Below are positions 28,554 to 38,186 of a DNA stretch of 64,000 bases, piece after piece (position 1 is the first letter of the stretch; every line of letters begins with the position of its first letter). This stretch comes from Thermoplasmata archaeon (GTDB taxonomy: Archaea; Thermoplasmatota; Thermoplasmata; Lutacidiplasmatales; UBA184), in NCBI GenBank assembly GCA_022750115.1, contig JAKIWI010000004.1, positions 1 to 64,000 on the forward strand, given 5' to 3'. Both the position numbers and the translations under genes were made by a program. Under the pieces are notes generated by a model. It made no database searches and was not told where the DNA came from. It was given only the letters and a program-made list of their open reading frames with translations.

Positions 28554-29557
28554 GCGCGGGCTCTCACGCCGTTGCCACGCCGACGATCGAGGAGCTCGAC
28601 GCCGAGGTGGAGCGCTGGGTGCGTCCCGGCCAGGGATGGCGACTGTTTCTGCGCCGGTTCCTCGGCAACCCTGCGCTGATCACCGGGGTCGGGGTTCTCG
28701 GCGCGTACGTCGCGATCGCCATCGCGGCGGTCGTGTACTATGGGCCGACCCTCACGACGCCGCCGTTCCGGGTGGACTGGGCCGAGACGATCCCCCCGCC
28801 CGGGCCCAGCTGGGCGCATCCGTTCGGCATCATGAGCGGGATCGGCGTCGACGGGTTCGGCGAGGTCGCCCGCGCCTTTCCGATCGACCTCGGGCTCGTG
28901 TTCCTCGCCCTCGGGTCCGCCGGTTCGGTCGGTGTGCTGCTCGGTGCCTACGCGGCCGTCCGCGGGGGCGCCGCGGACTTTTGGGTGAGCTTCGCGGCCG
29001 ACGTGGAGGCCGGCATGCCGCCGTTCTTCTTCGTCATCGTCCTCTACCTGGGGCTCGAGCTGACGATCCCGCCGGCCTGGCGCCTCTACGCCTTTCCCCT
29101 CCTGTTCGGCGCGGTGCTGTGGCCGTACTACGCCCGCCCGGTCCGCGCGGTTGCGAAGCAGGTCGTCACCGAGCCGTACGTCGAGTCCGCGCGGGCGGCC
29201 GGTGCGACGCGCGCCCACGTGCTCTTCCGCCACGTTCTGCCGAACGCGCTGTACCCGGCCCTCGCCCAGGTCCCGGTCGATGTCTACAGCATCTTCTTCG
29301 TGTTCACGATCTTCCCGTTCCTCAACTGCTCGAGCGGCGGGTTGTACAACCTGATCACGCCGTTCCCCAACCTGTTCTTCCCCGAGTGGGGAAGCCTGCT
29401 CGCGCAGGGGACGTGCTACGGGTTCAGCATCTTCGCCCCGCCGGGCTATTGGTGGATGTACTTCTTCCCCGCGGCCGCGATCATCGGCCTCGGCTTCGGC
29501 CTGACGTTCACCTGCGACGGCATCGACCGCTGGCTGTCGACGCGGCGGCGCGCCTAG
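28550..29557 (+). CDS. DppC-type ABC transporter permease
   Basis: A 335-residue partner permease. After a cytoplasmic N-terminus (EELDAEVERWVRPGQGW) there are about six helices, an extended outer loop (HPFGIMSGIGVDGFGEVARA, the DppC-family start of the core) and the EAA loop TEPYVESARAAGATRAHVLF. With the upstream fusion it would make the heterodimeric channel of an oligopeptide-type importer. GTG 28550 overlaps the upstream stop. The C-terminal FTCDGIDRWLSTRRR resembles DppC ends. The ATPases must be encoded elsewhere. The stop codon interlocks with the convergent gene through CTAG. Confidence 0.88.
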   Translation: MSAGSHAVATPTIEELDAEVERWVRPGQGWRLFLRRFLGNPALITGVGVLGAYVAIAIAAVVYYGPTLTTPPFRVDWAETIPPPGPSWAHPFGIMSGIGVDGFGEVARAFPIDLGLVFLALGSAGSVGVLLGAYAAVRGGAADFWVSFAADVEAGMPPFFFVIVLYLGLELTIPPAWRLYAFPLLFGAVLWPYYARPVRAVAKQVVTEPYVESARAAGATRAHVLFRHVLPNALYPALAQVPVDVYSIFFVFTIFPFLNCSSGGLYNLITPFPNLFFPEWGSLLAQGTCYGFSIFAPPGYWWMYFFPAAAIIGLGFGLTFTCDGIDRWLSTRRRA

Positions 29558-31833
29558 CGGATGTGGTCCAGCGAGAACGAGCCGAGGCTGAACGACTTCT
29601 TGCTGAACGTGTAGCCGATCCAGGCGCGCGACTGGACCTCGCCGAGGCCGCGCACGGAGAGGAACGTCTTCAGCTGGTCGAGCTTCAGGTTCACCGAGCC
29701 GTCGGTCATGTGTTCGAGGGTCTGCAGGTCGGACTCCGAGTGCATGCCGGTCTCGAGCACGTAGTACGCCGCGGCGCCATCGAGCCGTCGGCGGCCCGAG
29801 AACGGCTGCAGGAACCGGAACGTCGCGGCGGTGTCCAGGTAGGCGGAGAGCGTGGACACCGTCTCGAAGACGAGTCGGTAGGAGCGGTCCTTGAACTTCT
29901 CGCGGAACTCTTGCGCGGAGGCGTTCACCGACTGGGTGAGCTGCTCGAGCATCGCCTTGTCCCCCGGGGCGAGGAGTTTGACGCCGGTCTCGGCCTGCGC
30001 GACACCGAGGCTCCGGGAGTACAGGTCGACGTAGCGGACCAGCCCCTTCGCCTCCGCGTCGCCGTACTGCGGGTAGATCGCGAGCATGTCGTCGCGGATC
30101 TGGGTGTAGGTCTTGTCCGTCACGACCCAGATCGCGGGGATCCCCGCGCGCAGGCCCTCGGCGACGAACAACCGGGCGAGGACGTCCTTGCCCGTGTGCA
30201 CGGGCCCGTTGATGAGGGCCTGTGCGGCCGGCGGGAGGCCACCGAACATCAGGTCGTCGAGGCGGCGGACCCCGGAGCGGACCTTCCCGACCTTCGTCTC
30301 GCTGACGATGTCGAGGTGCATCTCCTCCGCCTCGACGGCCGCGGCCTTCCGCTGGAGCGTCTCGATCTCCTGCATCTGCTGGTGGAGGTAGGTTTCCCGG
30401 GCGCGGAGCTCCTGCTCCTTCTTCGCGAGTTCCGAGCGGAGGTCGTCGAGCTTCTTCGCCTCCTCCGGCCGCATCCCGCCGCCGGCCGACTCGAGCTCGG
30501 AGCGCCCGGCCTCGATCCGGCGTGCTTCGAGCTCGAGCGCCTGCTTCGTCGTCTGGAGCTGGCGCTCCCACGCCGCGAGCTCATTCTCCTTGAACTGGAG
30601 CGGACCGCGCTGGCGCTCGACCTCCTCCGCGGAGATCCGGATCTCCTCGAACTTCGTTCGAAGCTCGTTCTCGCGGTTGACGAGGTCGCGTTCTCGCCCC
30701 TCGAGGTGCTTCAACCGGTCGGTGATCTCCTGTGGGAGGGCGGCGCCCTTCGCGAGGAGCGAGTCGTGTTCCTGGCGCGATTCGACCTCCGCGCGCGCGG
30801 CGCGGATCTCGCCCTCGAGCTGGACGATGCGGCGACGGAACTCCGCCTCGCGCTCGACGAACGCCTGTTCGCGCGCCTGGATCTCGGCGCGCACCTGGCC
30901 GTCGGCGAGCGGGTTCGACGCCACCGGCGCCGTCGTGACGTCGTGGGAGGGGGAGTCGGACGACGGCGCGCTGCCGTCGCCCTCCAGGGGCGGGAGGGTG
31001 AGGAGCTTCAGCTTGAGCTCGGCGATCTCGGCGTCCTTCGCCTGGACCGCCTGTTCGCGGGCCTTCGCTTCCTTCCCCCGGACGTACTTGATCACGGCGA
31101 TGGAGCCGCGCTTGACGTGCTCGACCTCGTCCTCGAGCTGCTTGCGCTTCGCGCGCTCCTCGAACAGCGACCGGTGCAGCTCTTGCGACTCCTGGAGGAG
31201 CGACTGGGGGTCGAACTGGTCGCTCTTCACGCGGTCGAGGAGGTCGGTGAGCCACCGGACGACCGTTTCCTCGCGTTCGGCGATCTGGGACGGTACGGCA
31301 GGCGCCGGAGCCGGGCGGGCCGCGGGAGCGGTGTCGCCGGGGGCGGGAGGGGCAGCCGGCGGGATGGAGGACGGCGGCGGAGCGACCGAGGCCGAGGGCG
31401 CCGGTCGGCGCGGGGCGACGTCGCTCGACTGGATCCAGGTCTCCATCGCCCGGTCGTCGCCGTCGACCCACTTTCGGAGGACCTCGGTCGAACCCTTCGC
31501 CGCCGGGGCGACCTTCCGGCGCGAGCGGTCGCTGGAGCGTCCCGAGGCCATCATGCGGTTGAACGCGCGGTCGTCCAGGTCCTTCGCGCCGGCGGTCGGC
31601 GCGGGCGTCGGGGAATCGCCGTGCACCCGGTCGGCCTCCGACGCGTCGAGCCCGAGTTCGAGGAGCGCTTCCCGCCCGACCGACTTCACCTGGGAGACGG
31701 TCGAGTAGCCGGCGTCGGCGAGTCGTTGGGCCGTTCCGGGGGAGATCCCGAACGCTTGGACAAATGCGCTGGCTGGGGAGTCTCGGGAAGGGGTACCCGG
31801 ATCCGCCGCGGCCTCGGCGGGAGCGTCGCTCAT
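29554..31833 (-). CDS. HhH + long coiled coil + KaiC/RadA-like domain with altered P-loop
   Basis: A 759-residue protein. Residues 20-75 resemble the helix-hairpin-helix N-terminal domain of RadA (FGISPGTAQRLADAGYSTVSQV). Residues 80-190 are Pro/Ala-rich linker; residues about 190-500 are heptad coiled coil rich in Glu, Arg and Leu. Residues 505-759 are a RecA/KaiC-like fold (VRRLDDLMFGGLPPAAQALINGP). The P-loop reads GPVHTGKDV: the Ser/Thr after Lys is Asp, so normal Mg-ATP binding is doubtful. Role unknown; the size and shape suggest a structural or DNA-associated scaffold. ATG 31833 has TATA-like TATAG near 31867. Confidence 0.82.
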   Translation of the reverse strand: MSDAPAEAAADPGTPSRDSPASAFVQAFGISPGTAQRLADAGYSTVSQVKSVGREALLELGLDASEADRVHGDSPTPAPTAGAKDLDDRAFNRMMASGRSSDRSRRKVAPAAKGSTEVLRKWVDGDDRAMETWIQSSDVAPRRPAPSASVAPPPSSIPPAAPPAPGDTAPAARPAPAPAVPSQIAEREETVVRWLTDLLDRVKSDQFDPQSLLQESQELHRSLFEERAKRKQLEDEVEHVKRGSIAVIKYVRGKEAKAREQAVQAKDAEIAELKLKLLTLPPLEGDGSAPSSDSPSHDVTTAPVASNPLADGQVRAEIQAREQAFVEREAEFRRRIVQLEGEIRAARAEVESRQEHDSLLAKGAALPQEITDRLKHLEGRERDLVNRENELRTKFEEIRISAEEVERQRGPLQFKENELAAWERQLQTTKQALELEARRIEAGRSELESAGGGMRPEEAKKLDDLRSELAKKEQELRARETYLHQQMQEIETLQRKAAAVEAEEMHLDIVSETKVGKVRSGVRRLDDLMFGGLPPAAQALINGPVHTGKDVLARLFVAEGLRAGIPAIWVVTDKTYTQIRDDMLAIYPQYGDAEAKGLVRYVDLYSRSLGVAQAETGVKLLAPGDKAMLEQLTQSVNASAQEFREKFKDRSYRLVFETVSTLSAYLDTAATFRFLQPFSGRRRLDGAAAYYVLETGMHSESDLQTLEHMTDGSVNLKLDQLKTFLSVRGLGEVQSRAWIGYTFSKKSFSLGSFSLDHIR

Positions 31834-32519: not shown

Positions 32520-33566
32520 ATGGACCGCGAGGAGCGCGTCGAGCGGGTCGCGCGGCACACGGAGGAGCTGCTCACCCGGGAGGAGCTCGCCGGACTGTTC
32601 GAGCGAACCGAGCGGCCCCGTGCCTACATCGGGTTCGAGCCGTCCGGCCGCCTCACGGCGGGCCACCTCGTCTGCGCCCGAAAGATGATCGACCTCCAGG
32701 AGGCGGGATGCGAGCTGACCGTGTTCCTCGCGGACTGGCACGCCTGGATCAACGACAAGCTCGGCGGGTCGCTCGAGCGGATCGGCGCGGCCGGCCGGTA
32801 CATGCGCTCGGCGTTCCAGGCCCTCGGGGTCTCGGAGGGCGAGACGCACTGGCGGTGGGCGAACGAGCTGACGGGGTCGTCGGAGTACTGGGCGCGCGTC
32901 GTTCGGGTCGCGAAGACGACGTCGCTCGCCCGGACCAAGCGGGCGATGACGATCCTAGGCCGTACGGAAGAGGAGGCGCAGCTCGACACGGCGAAGCTGT
33001 TCTACCCGGCGATGCAGGCGTCCGACATCTTCGAGCTCCCCGTCGACATCGCCTACGCGGGCGTCGACCAGCGGCGCGCGCACGTTCTCGCGCGGGAGGT
33101 CGCGCACCACTACGGCTGGCCGGTCCCGGTCGCCGTCCACACCCCCCTCGTCTCGTCCCTGAAAGGAGGCGGCCGGATGGACGTCGGGCACGGGCCGGAG
33201 CGGAAGATGTCGAAGTCGGACCCGACGAGCGCGATCGTCCTGCCCGCGACGTTCGAAGAGGTCACGGCGCGGATGAACGGGGCGTTCTGCCCGGCGAAGG
33301 AGGTCGAGGGGAACCCAGTCGTCGAGCTCGCGCTCTACGTCGTCTTCCCGTGGCGCGGCCGGCTCACGATCCATCGGGCGGAGAAACACGGGGGCGACCG
33401 CTCGTTCGAGGACGCCACGACCTTCCGAGCCGCCTGGGTTGCGGGCGAGGTCCACCCAGCGGACCTCAAGGCCGCCGTCGCCGCCGAGGTCGCCGAGATC
33501 GCCCGACCGGTGACGGAGTACTTCCTCCACCACCCGAGCGAAGCTCCGGAGACCGCCGGCATCTAG
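32520..33566 (+). CDS. tyrS: Tyrosyl-tRNA synthetase
   Basis: A 348-residue class I synthetase of the short archaeal TyrRS type, which charges tRNA-Tyr. The HIGH-equivalent is YIGFEPSGRLTAGH near residue 36 and the KMSKS loop is RKMSKSDPTS near residue 228. YAGVDQRRAH is the tyrosine-pocket segment. No C-terminal S4 domain is present, as usual in archaea. ATG 32520 is supported by the upstream TATA box. Archaeal TrpRS has a different insert pattern, so TyrRS is preferred. Confidence 0.93.
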   Translation: MDREERVERVARHTEELLTREELAGLFERTERPRAYIGFEPSGRLTAGHLVCARKMIDLQEAGCELTVFLADWHAWINDKLGGSLERIGAAGRYMRSAFQALGVSEGETHWRWANELTGSSEYWARVVRVAKTTSLARTKRAMTILGRTEEEAQLDTAKLFYPAMQASDIFELPVDIAYAGVDQRRAHVLAREVAHHYGWPVPVAVHTPLVSSLKGGGRMDVGHGPERKMSKSDPTSAIVLPATFEEVTARMNGAFCPAKEVEGNPVVELALYVVFPWRGRLTIHRAEKHGGDRSFEDATTFRAAWVAGEVHPADLKAAVAAEVAEIARPVTEYFLHHPSEAPETAGI

Positions 33567-35640: not shown

Positions 35641-36108
35641 ATGGTCGTCAAGCGGACCTGCTCGTTCTGTGCGGGGGAGATCGAGCCCGGCACGGGCACG
35701 ATGTACATCAAGCGCGACGGCGCGGTCTTCCACTTCTGCTCCTCCTCCTGCCGCAAGCAGCAGCTCCACCTCGGCCGCGTCGGCCACCGGCTGAAGTGGA
35801 CGCGCGCGCACGCGCTGCGCCGCCAGACCGAACAGAGCTCCGCCGCCGGCAAGCTCGCGGCGGGAGCGAAGGGAAAGGCGGCGTTTTCCGGAACCGCGTT
35901 GAAGCGCCCGGCTCCCACGACCGAGGCCGGGAAGTCCTCGGCCGCTGCGGCGGTCGCTCCAGCACCATCCGTCGCCGGCGCGGCCCCCGCCGCCTCGCCC
36001 ACCCCTGCGGAAGCCACCGCGCCCAAGGAGCCCGCGACCGGCTCGACCACCTCCGCCGGGGCGAAGAAGCCCCGAGCGAAGAAGCCGAAAGAACCGGCTT
36101 CGCCGTAG
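35641..36108 (+). CDS. rpl24e: 50S ribosomal protein L24e with long disordered tail
   Basis: The first 60 residues are L24e, a zinc-binding ribosomal protein: CSFCAGEIEPGTG with CxxC, and FHFCSSSCRKQ with CxxxC. Family members are usually about 60-70 residues; here another 90 residues of Ala, Pro, Lys and Ser follow, a disordered basic tail of unknown role. The usual downstream ndk is not adjacent; it sits about 5 kb away. Confidence 0.93.
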   Translation: MVVKRTCSFCAGEIEPGTGTMYIKRDGAVFHFCSSSCRKQQLHLGRVGHRLKWTRAHALRRQTEQSSAAGKLAAGAKGKAAFSGTALKRPAPTTEAGKSSAAAAVAPAPSVAGAAPAASPTPAEATAPKEPATGSTTSAGAKKPRAKKPKEPASP

Positions 36109-36182: not shown

Positions 36183-36461
36183 ATGGCGGCCCCGGCGCGG
36201 GTTCGTTCCGGCCGGATGGTCTCCGCGAGCGATCTCGCGGAGTACGCGTTCTGTCCGCGAGCCCTCTACTATCGACGCCATCCCGACGGTCGATCGGTGG
36301 CGAGCGACGCTCCGGCCCGAGAGCGGGCGGGAGTCGCCTACCACACCCGGACGACCCGGTCGGACCGAAACTGGGCCGAGGCGTCGCCCCTGCCGTACGT
36401 CGGGTTGTTGGTCCTCGGCCTCGGTCTCCTCGCCCTCGCGGCGCTCGGGTGGGGTCTATGA
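36183..36461 (+). CDS. Split Cas4-like nuclease, N-terminal membrane-anchored half
   Basis: A 92-residue protein. SASDLAEYAFCPRALYYRR (Cys24) is the N-terminal Cas4/RecB-like motif that gives one Fe-S ligand; GVAYH (Gly50, His54) fits nuclease motif I. Residues 72-91 are a membrane helix, and the protein ends there. The remaining nuclease motifs are in the next gene, whose ATG overlaps this stop as ATGA. Together they look like a Cas4-family exonuclease split at a membrane hairpin. The start is ATG 36183. No CRISPR array or other cas gene is present. Confidence 0.72.
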   Translation: MAAPARVRSGRMVSASDLAEYAFCPRALYYRRHPDGRSVASDAPARERAGVAYHTRTTRSDRNWAEASPLPYVGLLVLGLGLLALAALGWGL

Positions 36462-36979
36462 CGGTCCCGCTGGACCCACGGTTCGTCCTCGCGATCATCG
36501 GTGGGATCATGGTCGGCGCGGCCGGGTGGGCCCTTCAGAGGTTGATGACGACCCGGCGTTGGGGCGCACTGGTCGCCTTCGACGACGGACGTCGACCTCC
36601 AGAGAACCTGGTCTCCGAGCGCCTTGGGCTCGTCGGACGCCCCGACGAAGTGTGGCGGCTCCGCGATGGCCGTCCGATCCCGGTGGAGATCAAGAGTCGA
36701 CGCGCCCCCTCCACCGGGACGTTCGCGTCCCATCGGGTCCAGGTCGAGGCCTACTGCCTGCTCCTCGAGTCGACCACGGGCCTCTCTCCGCCGTACGGCG
36801 TGCTGACCTACGCGGGCGGCGAATCGCGGCGGGTGCTCTGGGACGACGCGGCGCGGTCGGAGCTACTTTCGATCCTGGCGGCGGTCCGTCGGCCGTACGA
36901 TGGCGAGGCCGATCCTTCCCCCCGAAAGTGCGCCGGATGTCGCTGGCGCCCCGGGTGCGATGCGAGCCTTGCGTCCTGA
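36458..36979 (+). CDS. Split Cas4-like nuclease, C-terminal half with PD-(D/E)xK and Cys cluster
   Basis: A 173-residue protein. Residues 9-28 are a membrane helix. The nuclease core follows: GRPDEVW (Asp63), PVEIKSRR (Glu77, Lys79) and QVEAY (Gln95, Tyr99), the PD-(D/E)xK and RecB motifs. The C-terminus has CAGCRWRPGC (Cys158, 161, 167), the three cysteines that with one N-terminal Cys bind the Cas4 iron-sulfur cluster. That fourth Cys is in the preceding gene. Translation is coupled by ATGA; a GTG 9 bp upstream is an alternative start. Likely 5'-3' or flap DNA nuclease on the membrane (inference). Confidence 0.8.
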   Translation: MTVPLDPRFVLAIIGGIMVGAAGWALQRLMTTRRWGALVAFDDGRRPPENLVSERLGLVGRPDEVWRLRDGRPIPVEIKSRRAPSTGTFASHRVQVEAYCLLLESTTGLSPPYGVLTYAGGESRRVLWDDAARSELLSILAAVRRPYDGEADPSPRKCAGCRWRPGCDASLAS

Positions 36980-37076: not shown

Positions 37077-38186
37077 ATGCCGGAACTCCCCTCGACGCTG
37101 CACCGCGACGCGGCCCGCAACCTCGTGACCAAGTACCTGAAGGTCCGCGCGGGAGAGAACGCGGTCGTCGAGTCCTGGGACCACACGAGGTCGATGGCGT
37201 CGGCGTTGGTCGATGAAGTTCGTCGTGCGGGCGGCGAGGTTCTCCTCATCCACAACGACGAGGACGCCTGGTGGCGGGCGATCGACCGGAAGCAGAGCAA
37301 GCTGCTCGGAAGGTCGAGCGGTCCGGAGTGGGCGGCGTTGCAAGCCGCGGACGTGTTCGTCCATTTCTGGGGTCCGGCCGATACCGACCGGCTCGAGAAG
37401 ATCCCGGACCGGACCGGCGACGAGATCTTCGACTGGATCCCGCACTGGTACGAGGTGGCCCGGAAGTCGGGGCTCCGCGGGGGGCGGATGACCACCGGGT
37501 TCGTCACGGACGGACGGGCCCGGCAGTGGAGCGTGGACCGCGCGCAGTGGGAGGAGAGCATGCTGCGGGCCTGTCTCGTTGACCCAGAGGAGCTCGCCCA
37601 GAGCGGGGCGCGGCTCGGCAAAGCGCTCTCCCGCGGGAAGCAGGTGCGGATCACCCACTCCAACGGGACCGACCTCGAAGTAGGTCTCGCCGGGAAGGCT
37701 CCCTTCGTGCGCGATGGGCGCGCCCGCCCGTGGGCCAAGGGATCCTCCGCCTCGGGCATGCTGGAGAACTTCCCCACCGGCCTCGTCGAAGTGGCCCTCG
37801 ACTCTCGGACGGCGACGGGGGTCATCCACGCCAACCGCCGGACCAACATCTGGTGGACGTGGGACGCCGGGGGAACGCTCGAGTTCGCGGACGGAAAGCT
37901 GACTTCGTACTCCTTCGAGGAGGGAGAGGAAGAGTTCACCCGTCAGTACAAGCTCGGTACGTCGGGCAAAGACCGGGCGAGCACCCTCAAGATCGGGCTG
38001 AACCCAGCCGTCGAGGACGTCCCGAACTTGGAGTTCGTCGAGCGCGGGTGCACGTGCCTGGTCCTTGGCAGGAACACGCACGTCCTCGGCAGCAACCGGT
38101 CGAATTTCATGAGCTGGGTCATGCTCGCCGGCGCCGAGATCGCCGTGGACGGGACTCCCGTCGTCCGCGCCGGACAGATCCTCTAA
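37077..38186 (+). CDS. Aminopeptidase M29-like metallopeptidase
   Basis: A 369-residue cytoplasmic protein similar to the M29 (thermophilic aminopeptidase) family: an N-terminal Rossmann-like domain (YLKVRAGENAVVESWDHTR) and a C-terminal domain with ASGMLENFPTGLVEVA (metal-binding Glu), NIWWTWDAGG and HVLGSNRSNF. The residues equivalent to the second metal site appear less conserved than in AmpS (CTCLVLGRNTHV). It would remove N-terminal residues from peptides. ATG 37077 fits the family start; AGTTACAA near 37043 may be its TATA box. Confidence 0.78.
   Translation: MPELPSTLHRDAARNLVTKYLKVRAGENAVVESWDHTRSMASALVDEVRRAGGEVLLIHNDEDAWWRAIDRKQSKLLGRSSGPEWAALQAADVFVHFWGPADTDRLEKIPDRTGDEIFDWIPHWYEVARKSGLRGGRMTTGFVTDGRARQWSVDRAQWEESMLRACLVDPEELAQSGARLGKALSRGKQVRITHSNGTDLEVGLAGKAPFVRDGRARPWAKGSSASGMLENFPTGLVEVALDSRTATGVIHANRRTNIWWTWDAGGTLEFADGKLTSYSFEEGEEEFTRQYKLGTSGKDRASTLKIGLNPAVEDVPNLEFVERGCTCLVLGRNTHVLGSNRSNFMSWVMLAGAEIAVDGTPVVRAGQIL

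What the first reader, a model, noticed from the sequence alone, without database searches (positions are those of the whole stretch)
36183..36979. Cas4-like nuclease split into two membrane-anchored, translationally coupled halves
The first gene carries the Cas4 N-terminal Cys (FCPR) and GxxxH motif and ends in a membrane helix. The second starts with a membrane helix and carries Asp63, Glu77-x-Lys79, QxxxY and the CxxC-x5-C cluster. The Fe-S ligands and nuclease motifs are thus divided between two proteins that overlap by ATGA. A membrane-tethered split Cas4 with no CRISPR nearby, placed directly after ribosomal genes, may be a new DNA-processing or defence element.
Basis: partly seen in the sequence, partly recalled or inferred. 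Interest (0 to 1): 0.8.

Follow-up and report, generated by a model that had tools for sequence, protein, structure and literature searches.

The report
Two-gene, membrane-anchored Cas4-like nuclease
An archaeon encodes a DNA-cutting enzyme related to the CRISPR protein Cas4 as two small membrane-anchored halves made from overlapping genes, and relatives in its phylum carry either such a pair or a one-piece membrane version, which points to an unstudied job in handling DNA at the cell membrane.

Summary
ORF A (36183-36461) and ORF B (36458-36979) overlap by ATGA and share out the Cas4 signature: Cys and GxxxH in A; D, ExK, QxxxY and three Cys in B. Each has one predicted membrane helix. It is not a sequencing error: 79 adjacent pairs were found in 77 of 103 genomes of the family, and no -1 slippery site in 22 genus loci. 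The pair also occurs in two more families (10 of 10 and 12 of 12 loci read). Many other families have one chain with 2, 4 or 8 helices. Three genomes hold both forms, so the pair is an old subfamily rather than a recent break. A relative's pair, read through its stop, models as one Cas4-like domain (pLDDT 86.6, pTM 0.80). Cas1 was found in 19 of 103 family genomes and not in this one. Best reading: two co-translated subunits rebuild one Fe-S nuclease on the inner membrane face. The cellular role is open; I favour DNA-end processing at the membrane. SMC/ScpA-like or nuclease neighbours in other lineages are not found beside this pair. New variant of a known kind.

The parts
36183..36461 (+). 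ORF A (92 aa plus stop): Cas4 N-terminal half, predicted tail-anchored; C24 (FCPR), G50xxxH54, one C-terminal membrane helix (residues 73-89)
36458..36979 (+). ORF B (173 aa plus stop): Cas4 catalytic half; one N-terminal membrane helix (10-26), then D63, E77-x-K79, Q95xxxY99, C158/C161/C167
36458..36461 (+). ATGA overlap: start of B and stop of A, consistent with termination-reinitiation coupling (inferred)
36252..36254 (+). Cys24 codon of A, presumed first Fe-S ligand
   Evidence: invariant in 22 of 22 rows
36330..36344 (+). G50xxxH54 codons of A
   Evidence: G and H invariant in 22 of 22 rows
36644..36646 (+). Asp63 codon of B (GRPD), presumed metal ligand
   Evidence: invariant in 22 of 22 rows
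36686..36694 (+). Glu77-x-Lys79 codons of B, PD-(D/E)XK motif
   Evidence: E and K invariant in 22 of 22 rows
36740..36754 (+). Q95xxxY99 codons of B
   Evidence: Q and Y invariant in 22 of 22 rows
36929..36958 (+). Cys158, Cys161, Cys167 codons of B, presumed remaining Fe-S ligands
   Evidence: invariant in 22 of 22 rows
35641..36108 (+). upstream neighbour, ribosomal protein L24e (context, not part of the system)
37077..38186 (+). downstream neighbour, M29-type peptidase-like (context, not part of the system)

Best explanation
ORFs A and B are the two subunits of one membrane-embedded Cas4-family nuclease. Ribosomes finishing A restart on B at the overlap, so the halves are made side by side (inferred). 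A sits in the membrane by a C-terminal helix and B by an N-terminal helix, both soluble parts facing the cytoplasm (predicted from hydrophobicity and charge). The two helices pair like the arms of the hairpin that is continuous in single-chain relatives (inferred); the soluble parts then assemble into one PD-(D/E)XK domain with an Fe-S cluster whose first ligand comes from A and the other three from B (supported by conservation and by a model of a relative's pair; not shown). The enzyme would cut or trim DNA ends near the membrane. For the cellular role I commit to chromosomal DNA-end processing at the membrane rather than CRISPR adaptation; this last step is inference, at about 0.35, while assembly as one split Cas4 domain is about 0.8.
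For: Invariant motifs in both halves in 22 genus pairs. 79 adjacent pairs in 77 of 103 family genomes, 78 of 79 with one frame relation. dN/dS below 0.4 in both halves in 3 of 3 genus pairs tested. One helix per half: N-half 62 of 62 recovered by the scan (5 of 67 loci not recovered), C-half 64 of 67 loci, with net positive charge after the helix in all 64. Single chains with exactly one hairpin, 11 of 13 loci examined, and with four helices, 66 of 75 (sets fusedA, fused and f2f3). Read-through model of the L180 pair: pLDDT 86.6, pTM 0.80; best PDB hits Cas4 8d3l_I (E 8.5e-7, TMq 0.54, TMt 0.66, rmsd 4.5, 269 columns, gaps included) and Cas4/Cas1 7mi4_A. Single-chain model: Cas4 first, then Dna2 and MGME1 among the hits. 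Profiles hit 8d3l Cas4 and 4ic1. Cas1 in 19 of 103 family genomes, none in G000. In family f19 a gene of about 260 aa that I read as ScpA-like precedes the pair in 10 of 10 loci, after an smc-like gene in the 2 of 2 loci read further (Pfam run on one of the two, SMC_N E 7.9e-55).
Against: No heterodimer could be modelled for the window's own proteins; the model is of a distant relative's pair as one chain, and coordinates for Cys-Cys distances were not available. No biochemistry. The ScpA reading is weak: Pfam SMC_ScpA E 2e-4, below cut-off, in one of three proteins tested, none in the other two, no NCBIfam match as ScpA in two. Neighbourhoods differ among lineages: in the window's genome the SMC match over cut-off is on another contig, and the LTD-PLD partner of single-chain lineages was not found in 61 family genomes (no positive control there). 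22 of 103 family genomes have no B match at E 1e-18, 4 of them among the 36 that are at least 90% complete (G102, G033 and G032 are named in the listing), so the pair seems dispensable in some species. Three listed matches contain a stop that I did not look into (G308, G325; G292).
Confidence: 0.6

Rival explanations
1. The split is a sequencing or assembly error, or a decayed gene.
For: The frames differ by one step; some copies look decayed (G234 contig 75 with a TAG; partial N-half in G202).
Against: Same split in 77 of 103 family genomes, in f19 10 of 10 and f46 12 of 12 loci read; purifying selection in both halves in 3 of 3 pairs.
Confidence: 0.01
2. A programmed -1 frameshift joins A and B into one hairpin protein, so the cell makes a single chain.
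For: 78 of 79 family pairs share the -1 relation; the joined product would look like the one-hairpin single chain; one of 22 genus loci has only CTG as a start near the overlap (L020).
Against: 0 of 22 loci have an X XXY YYZ heptamer in the last 60 nt of A; 21 of 22 have ATG, GTG or TTG near the stop. In f19 the frame relation is 0, 1 or 2 among 10 loci, which one frameshift cannot serve.
Confidence: 0.07
3. A is not a structural half but a regulator or inhibitor, and B alone is a nuclease.
For: B carries all catalytic residues and passes the Pfam Cas_Cas4 cut-off alone; one family genome has a B without a recognisable A (G321).
Against: A's invariant residues include the Cas4-type N-terminal Cys and GxxxH; A reaches only Cas4 models in PADLOC; single-chain homologues join the two.
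Confidence: 0.1
4. It serves CRISPR spacer acquisition in trans, or is a stand-alone defence nuclease.
For: Cas4 family; 14 PADLOC models match B, Cas4, Cas1-fusion and DruK types; 19 of 103 family genomes have Cas1.
Against: At least 58 of the 77 genomes with the pair lack a Cas1 match, the window's included; housekeeping neighbours here. Defence itself was not tested.
Confidence: 0.2
5. It processes DNA taken up or exported through the membrane, beside an outward-facing nuclease.
For: 15 of 62 single-chain loci have directly upstream a gene of one cluster that Pfam calls LTD-PLD-PKD in the 2 proteins tested.
Against: That partner was not found in 61 genomes of the window's family (a search without a positive control in that group).
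Confidence: 0.2

Closest known systems
Solo-Cas4 (cas4 genes outside CRISPR loci; PF01930, TIGR00372; Hudaiberdiev et al. 2017, PMC5704561)
   Same: Same motifs, four Cys, PD-(D/E)XK core, no cas neighbours at the locus; the abstract reports solo-cas4 as mostly vertical and common in archaea
   Different: Membrane helices between GxxxH and the catalytic Asp; two genes. In the main text of that paper transmembrane, split, fission and Thermoplasm- do not occur and membrane occurs once, in a gene-name list. I saw the abstract, passages and section 5 part 1, not the supplements
CRISPR Cas4 of type I-C (8d3l) and Cas4/Cas1 (7mi4, 7mi5)
   Same: Top structural matches of both models
   Different: Bound to Cas1-Cas2, no membrane helix (recalled); here no Cas1 match in the genome
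Dna2, MGME1 and AdnAB nuclease domains
   Same: Matched by fold, Dna2 and AdnAB also by profile; that Dna2 and AdnAB nuclease domains hold Fe-S clusters is recalled
   Different: Helicase-linked or mitochondrial soluble proteins (recalled); no divided cluster known to me
Single-chain membrane Cas4 of Thermoplasmatota
   Same: Same order of elements and motifs; about 330 aa
   Different: One gene with 2, 4 or 8 helices instead of two genes with one helix each

Membership tests
Cas4 / PD-(D/E)XK nuclease family | Catalytic D, ExK, QxxxY motifs | tested here: met
   Invariant in 22 of 22 ORF B orthologues; Pfam Cas_Cas4 above cut-off
Cas4 / PD-(D/E)XK nuclease family | N-terminal Cys and GxxxH, with three C-terminal Cys for the Fe-S cluster | tested here: met
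   Present, but divided between two genes
Cas4 / PD-(D/E)XK nuclease family | Score over the TIGR00372 equivalog cut-off | tested here: not met
   ORF B 52.2 bits against 65; the single-chain relative L028 passes with 72.8
Cas4 / PD-(D/E)XK nuclease family | Cas4 fold | tested here: inconclusive
   Met for a relative's pair read as one chain and for a single-chain relative; not modelled for the window's own pair
Cas4 / PD-(D/E)XK nuclease family | Bound Fe-S cluster and nuclease activity | not testable with these tools
   Needs protein
CRISPR adaptation module (CAS-Cas4) | Association with cas1/cas2 | tested here: not met
   No Cas1 match in G000; 19 of 103 family genomes have one; Cas2 not tested
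Solo-Cas4 | cas4 homologue outside CRISPR-cas loci | tested here: met
   Neighbours are L7Ae, S28e, L24e and an M29 peptidase-like gene
Known anti-phage defence system | Complete set of system genes | not tested
   Only single-protein PADLOC matches, to Cas4, Cas1-fusion and DruK models

The most novel reading that the evidence does not exclude
A phylum-wide class of membrane-embedded Fe-S nucleases built from modular membrane hairpins, of which one ancient branch is an obligate two-subunit enzyme whose iron-sulphur cluster is shared between subunits; it ties DNA-end processing (chromosome segregation or entering DNA) to the archaeal membrane and has no counterpart among described Cas4 proteins that I could find.
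Probability: 0.4. Interest if true: 0.8.

Novelty: new variant of a known kind. Interest (0 to 1): 0.64.

Why it matters
The single-chain relative tested (L028) scores above NCBI's cut-off for 'CRISPR-associated protein Cas4' (72.8 against 65 bits), while in the window's family at least 58 of 77 carriers of the pair have no Cas1 match; so a membrane enzyme of an archaeal phylum may be hidden under a CRISPR name (Cas1 was not tested in the single-chain lineages). It turns the open question of what solo-Cas4 does into concrete tests. A divided Fe-S cluster held by two membrane anchors would be an unusual solution, and the series from one-hairpin chain to two proteins shows how a membrane hairpin can be cut without loss of topology.

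Tried and rejected
Sequencing error, pseudogene and programmed frameshift were tested and set aside. Repeated independent fission was my first reading. In the first tree the split families f1 and f19+f46 lay apart and two changes were needed, but one clade was not rejected (p-AU 0.594; the held tree scored 4.04 log units higher). After adding one-hairpin forms and the split copies of f11 and f27, and thinning other rows, one split/fused change suffices, so I dropped it. Polarity cannot be read from an unrooted tree; L219 has a long branch, support for f1 fell to 79/74 in that tree, and letter make-up is uneven. A shared SMC context was dropped for the window: the SMC match over cut-off lies on another contig. 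The LTD-PLD partner was looked for in 61 family genomes and not found (no positive control). My first C-half helix count was wrong because the sequences were cut too short and was redone; the helix threshold was 1.6 and 1.5. Alignment A5 misplaced the N-halves and was replaced by A7. Rows dropped: in the neighbourhood count 18 of 80 loci, where the script did not find the gene; in the extraction of halves 15 of 80 named single-chain loci, 3 of 23 f1, 1 of 22 genus, 1 of 12 f46 and 2 of 2 f17 loci; the missed genus and f46 loci were read as split. Of the 23 f1 loci, one (L162) is the soluble second gene. In one search the genus list has one further pair-like place (G016 contig 76) that I did not fetch; searches show it as a pair.

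Literature: no paper in the library holds split Cas4, membrane-bound Cas4, membrane-anchored Cas4, Cas4 transmembrane or membrane Cas4 (0 papers). The listings (20 of 63 papers shown; 20 of 201; 4 of 4; 7 of 7; 1 of 1) showed no title or abstract start on this protein. PMC5704561: abstract, passages and section 5 part 1. PMC10354927: passages on Cas4 and RecB only. PMC11237513 (archaeal fusion/fission): listing only, 0 occurrences of cas4. Most subscription papers are outside that library.

Full report
The observation. The window holds two overlapping genes on the + strand: A, 36183-36461, and B, 36458-36979, sharing ATGA. A ends in a predicted membrane helix and B begins with one. B matches Cas4 models over their C-terminal two thirds; A matches only their first 30 to 45 positions, weakly on its own. 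Positions 31-62 of TIGR00372 lie between the two matches; that is where the membrane segments sit.

It is real and inherited. Of 61 genomes (the window's and 60 relatives) 54 match B; by score and frame many of these matches are a second, soluble Cas4-like gene, of which I read only the window genome's copy. All 22 fetched genus loci with the orthologue show A directly upstream of B. In the family (103 genomes, the window's included) the N-half profile hit 78 genomes and the C-half profile 81. Pairing the listed places gives 79 adjacent pairs in 77 genomes, with 2 unpaired N and 6 unpaired C places. Both unpaired N places and two of the C places (G110, G264) lie at contig ends; G292 contig 92 has an N-half readable by eye; G202 has a partial N-half with GxxxH and helix but no intact Cys part; G234 contig 75 is a partial copy beside a stop; for G321 no N-half was found. 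Non-synonymous change is below 0.4 of synonymous change in both halves in 3 of 3 genus pairs tested. No genus locus (0 of 22) has a -1 slippery heptamer, and 21 of 22 have ATG, GTG or TTG near the stop.

How far it reaches. The single-chain profile (A1) matched 223 of 300 genomes of the class and 125 of 194 of the phylum; these totals include split forms. Named single-chain loci carry titles such as Thermoplasmata, Methanomassiliicoccales, DHVE2 and Euryarchaeota archaeon. One of them (L098, Thermoplasmata archaeon) is identical in the tree columns to L031 from G045, which the tool places in the window's class; so the window most likely comes from a member of Thermoplasmata in the wide sense. 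Two further families carry the pair: f19, 10 of 10 loci read, with frame relations 0, 1 or 2, and f46, 12 of 12 loci read. Families f2 and f3, in the window's order, have the single chain in the three genomes read. Three genomes, G130, G058 and G047, hold both a pair (read) and a single chain (for all three; read for G130). Two or three N-half hits in G069, G078, G093 and G109 of f11 suggest the same, unread.

One old subfamily. In the tree with 83 rows the split and single-chain forms need one change. The earlier tree with 93 rows needed two, but one clade was not rejected. With both forms in one genome, the simplest account is an old duplication with different losses; this is inference.

Membrane plan. 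Of 75 single-chain loci in three sets, 66 have four predicted helices, 7 three and 2 none. Of 13 loci picked for short or long frames, 11 have exactly two, one eight, and one was not recovered. The pair looks like the two-helix form opened in the outer loop: A's helix has 0-12 residues after it, and B's helix is followed by net positive charge in all 64 loci with one. This predicts both soluble parts inside.

Structure. The single-chain model (L028, 53 rows) has pLDDT 78.5 and pTM 0.71; its best solved matches are Cas4, with Dna2, MGME1 and Argonaute-associated Cas4 proteins further down. For a split pair, that of L180 (f19), whose halves are in frame with one TGA between them, was read through under table 4 as a modelling device only: pLDDT 86.6, pTM 0.80; residues 21-40 of the N-half at 94-96 and residues 141-230 of the core at 94-98; the helix parts at 74-91. 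Best match Cas4 8d3l_I. I could not measure Cys distances. The window's pair is in different frames and could not be modelled jointly.

Neighbours. Window: L7Ae, S28e, L24e upstream; M29 peptidase-like and RIO-domain genes downstream. Single-chain loci (62 of 80 counted), by clusters with Pfam run on one or two members each: LTD-PLD-PKD gene directly upstream in 15, TPD-motif gene directly upstream in 13, a small convergent membrane gene downstream in 18, a CAAX-protease-like gene downstream in 6. f19: a gene that I read as ScpA-like upstream in 10 of 10, an smc-like gene before it in 2 of 2. f46: other genes. No one context is shared, so role by neighbourhood is only suggestive.

Function. 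Cas1 matched in 19 of 103 family genomes and not in the window's, against 77 with the pair. That argues against adaptation as the main role. My commitment is a membrane-held nuclease that trims DNA ends in chromosome upkeep; DNA entry and defence stay possible.

Known or not. By motifs it belongs to the Cas4 family, and by fold as far as relatives show; it is best filed as a solo-Cas4. A membrane-embedded two-gene form was not found in the papers I could search.

Noticed in passing
L182 2117-3781; L183 1752-3428; L215; L216; L234: Single-chain membrane Cas4 proteins of about 500-650 aa; eight helices computed for L234 and for two of six further loci, as if the membrane hairpin had been duplicated. 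L182 and L183 were not counted by script.
   Followed up: partly
L067 3367-5976 and 14 other loci of its cluster: A gene with lamin tail, PLD-like and PKD domains and a C-terminal helix lies directly upstream of the single-chain membrane Cas4.
   Followed up: partly
L039 5190-5972 and 12 other loci of its cluster: A TPD-motif gene (PF14811, function unknown) lies directly upstream of the single-chain membrane Cas4.
   Followed up: partly
L185 1956-2759 (-), the window's own genome, contig 20: A second Cas4-like gene without an obvious membrane helix; no Pfam match up to E 5, weak Cas4 NCBIfam match. Matches of similar score occur in most genus genomes.
   Followed up: partly
L189 8066-12593 (-); L190 2884-8954 (+): In family f19 the order is smc-like gene, ScpA-like gene, Cas4 N-half, Cas4 C-half, then a class I tRNA synthetase.
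   Followed up: partly
window 32520-33566: A class I tRNA synthetase gene (W/Y type) lies about 2.6 kb upstream of the pair; the same kind of gene follows the pair in L190 of family f19.
   Followed up: no
window 29554-31833 (-): A 759-aa protein with a long charged middle and a C-terminal KaiC-like ATPase domain.
   Followed up: no
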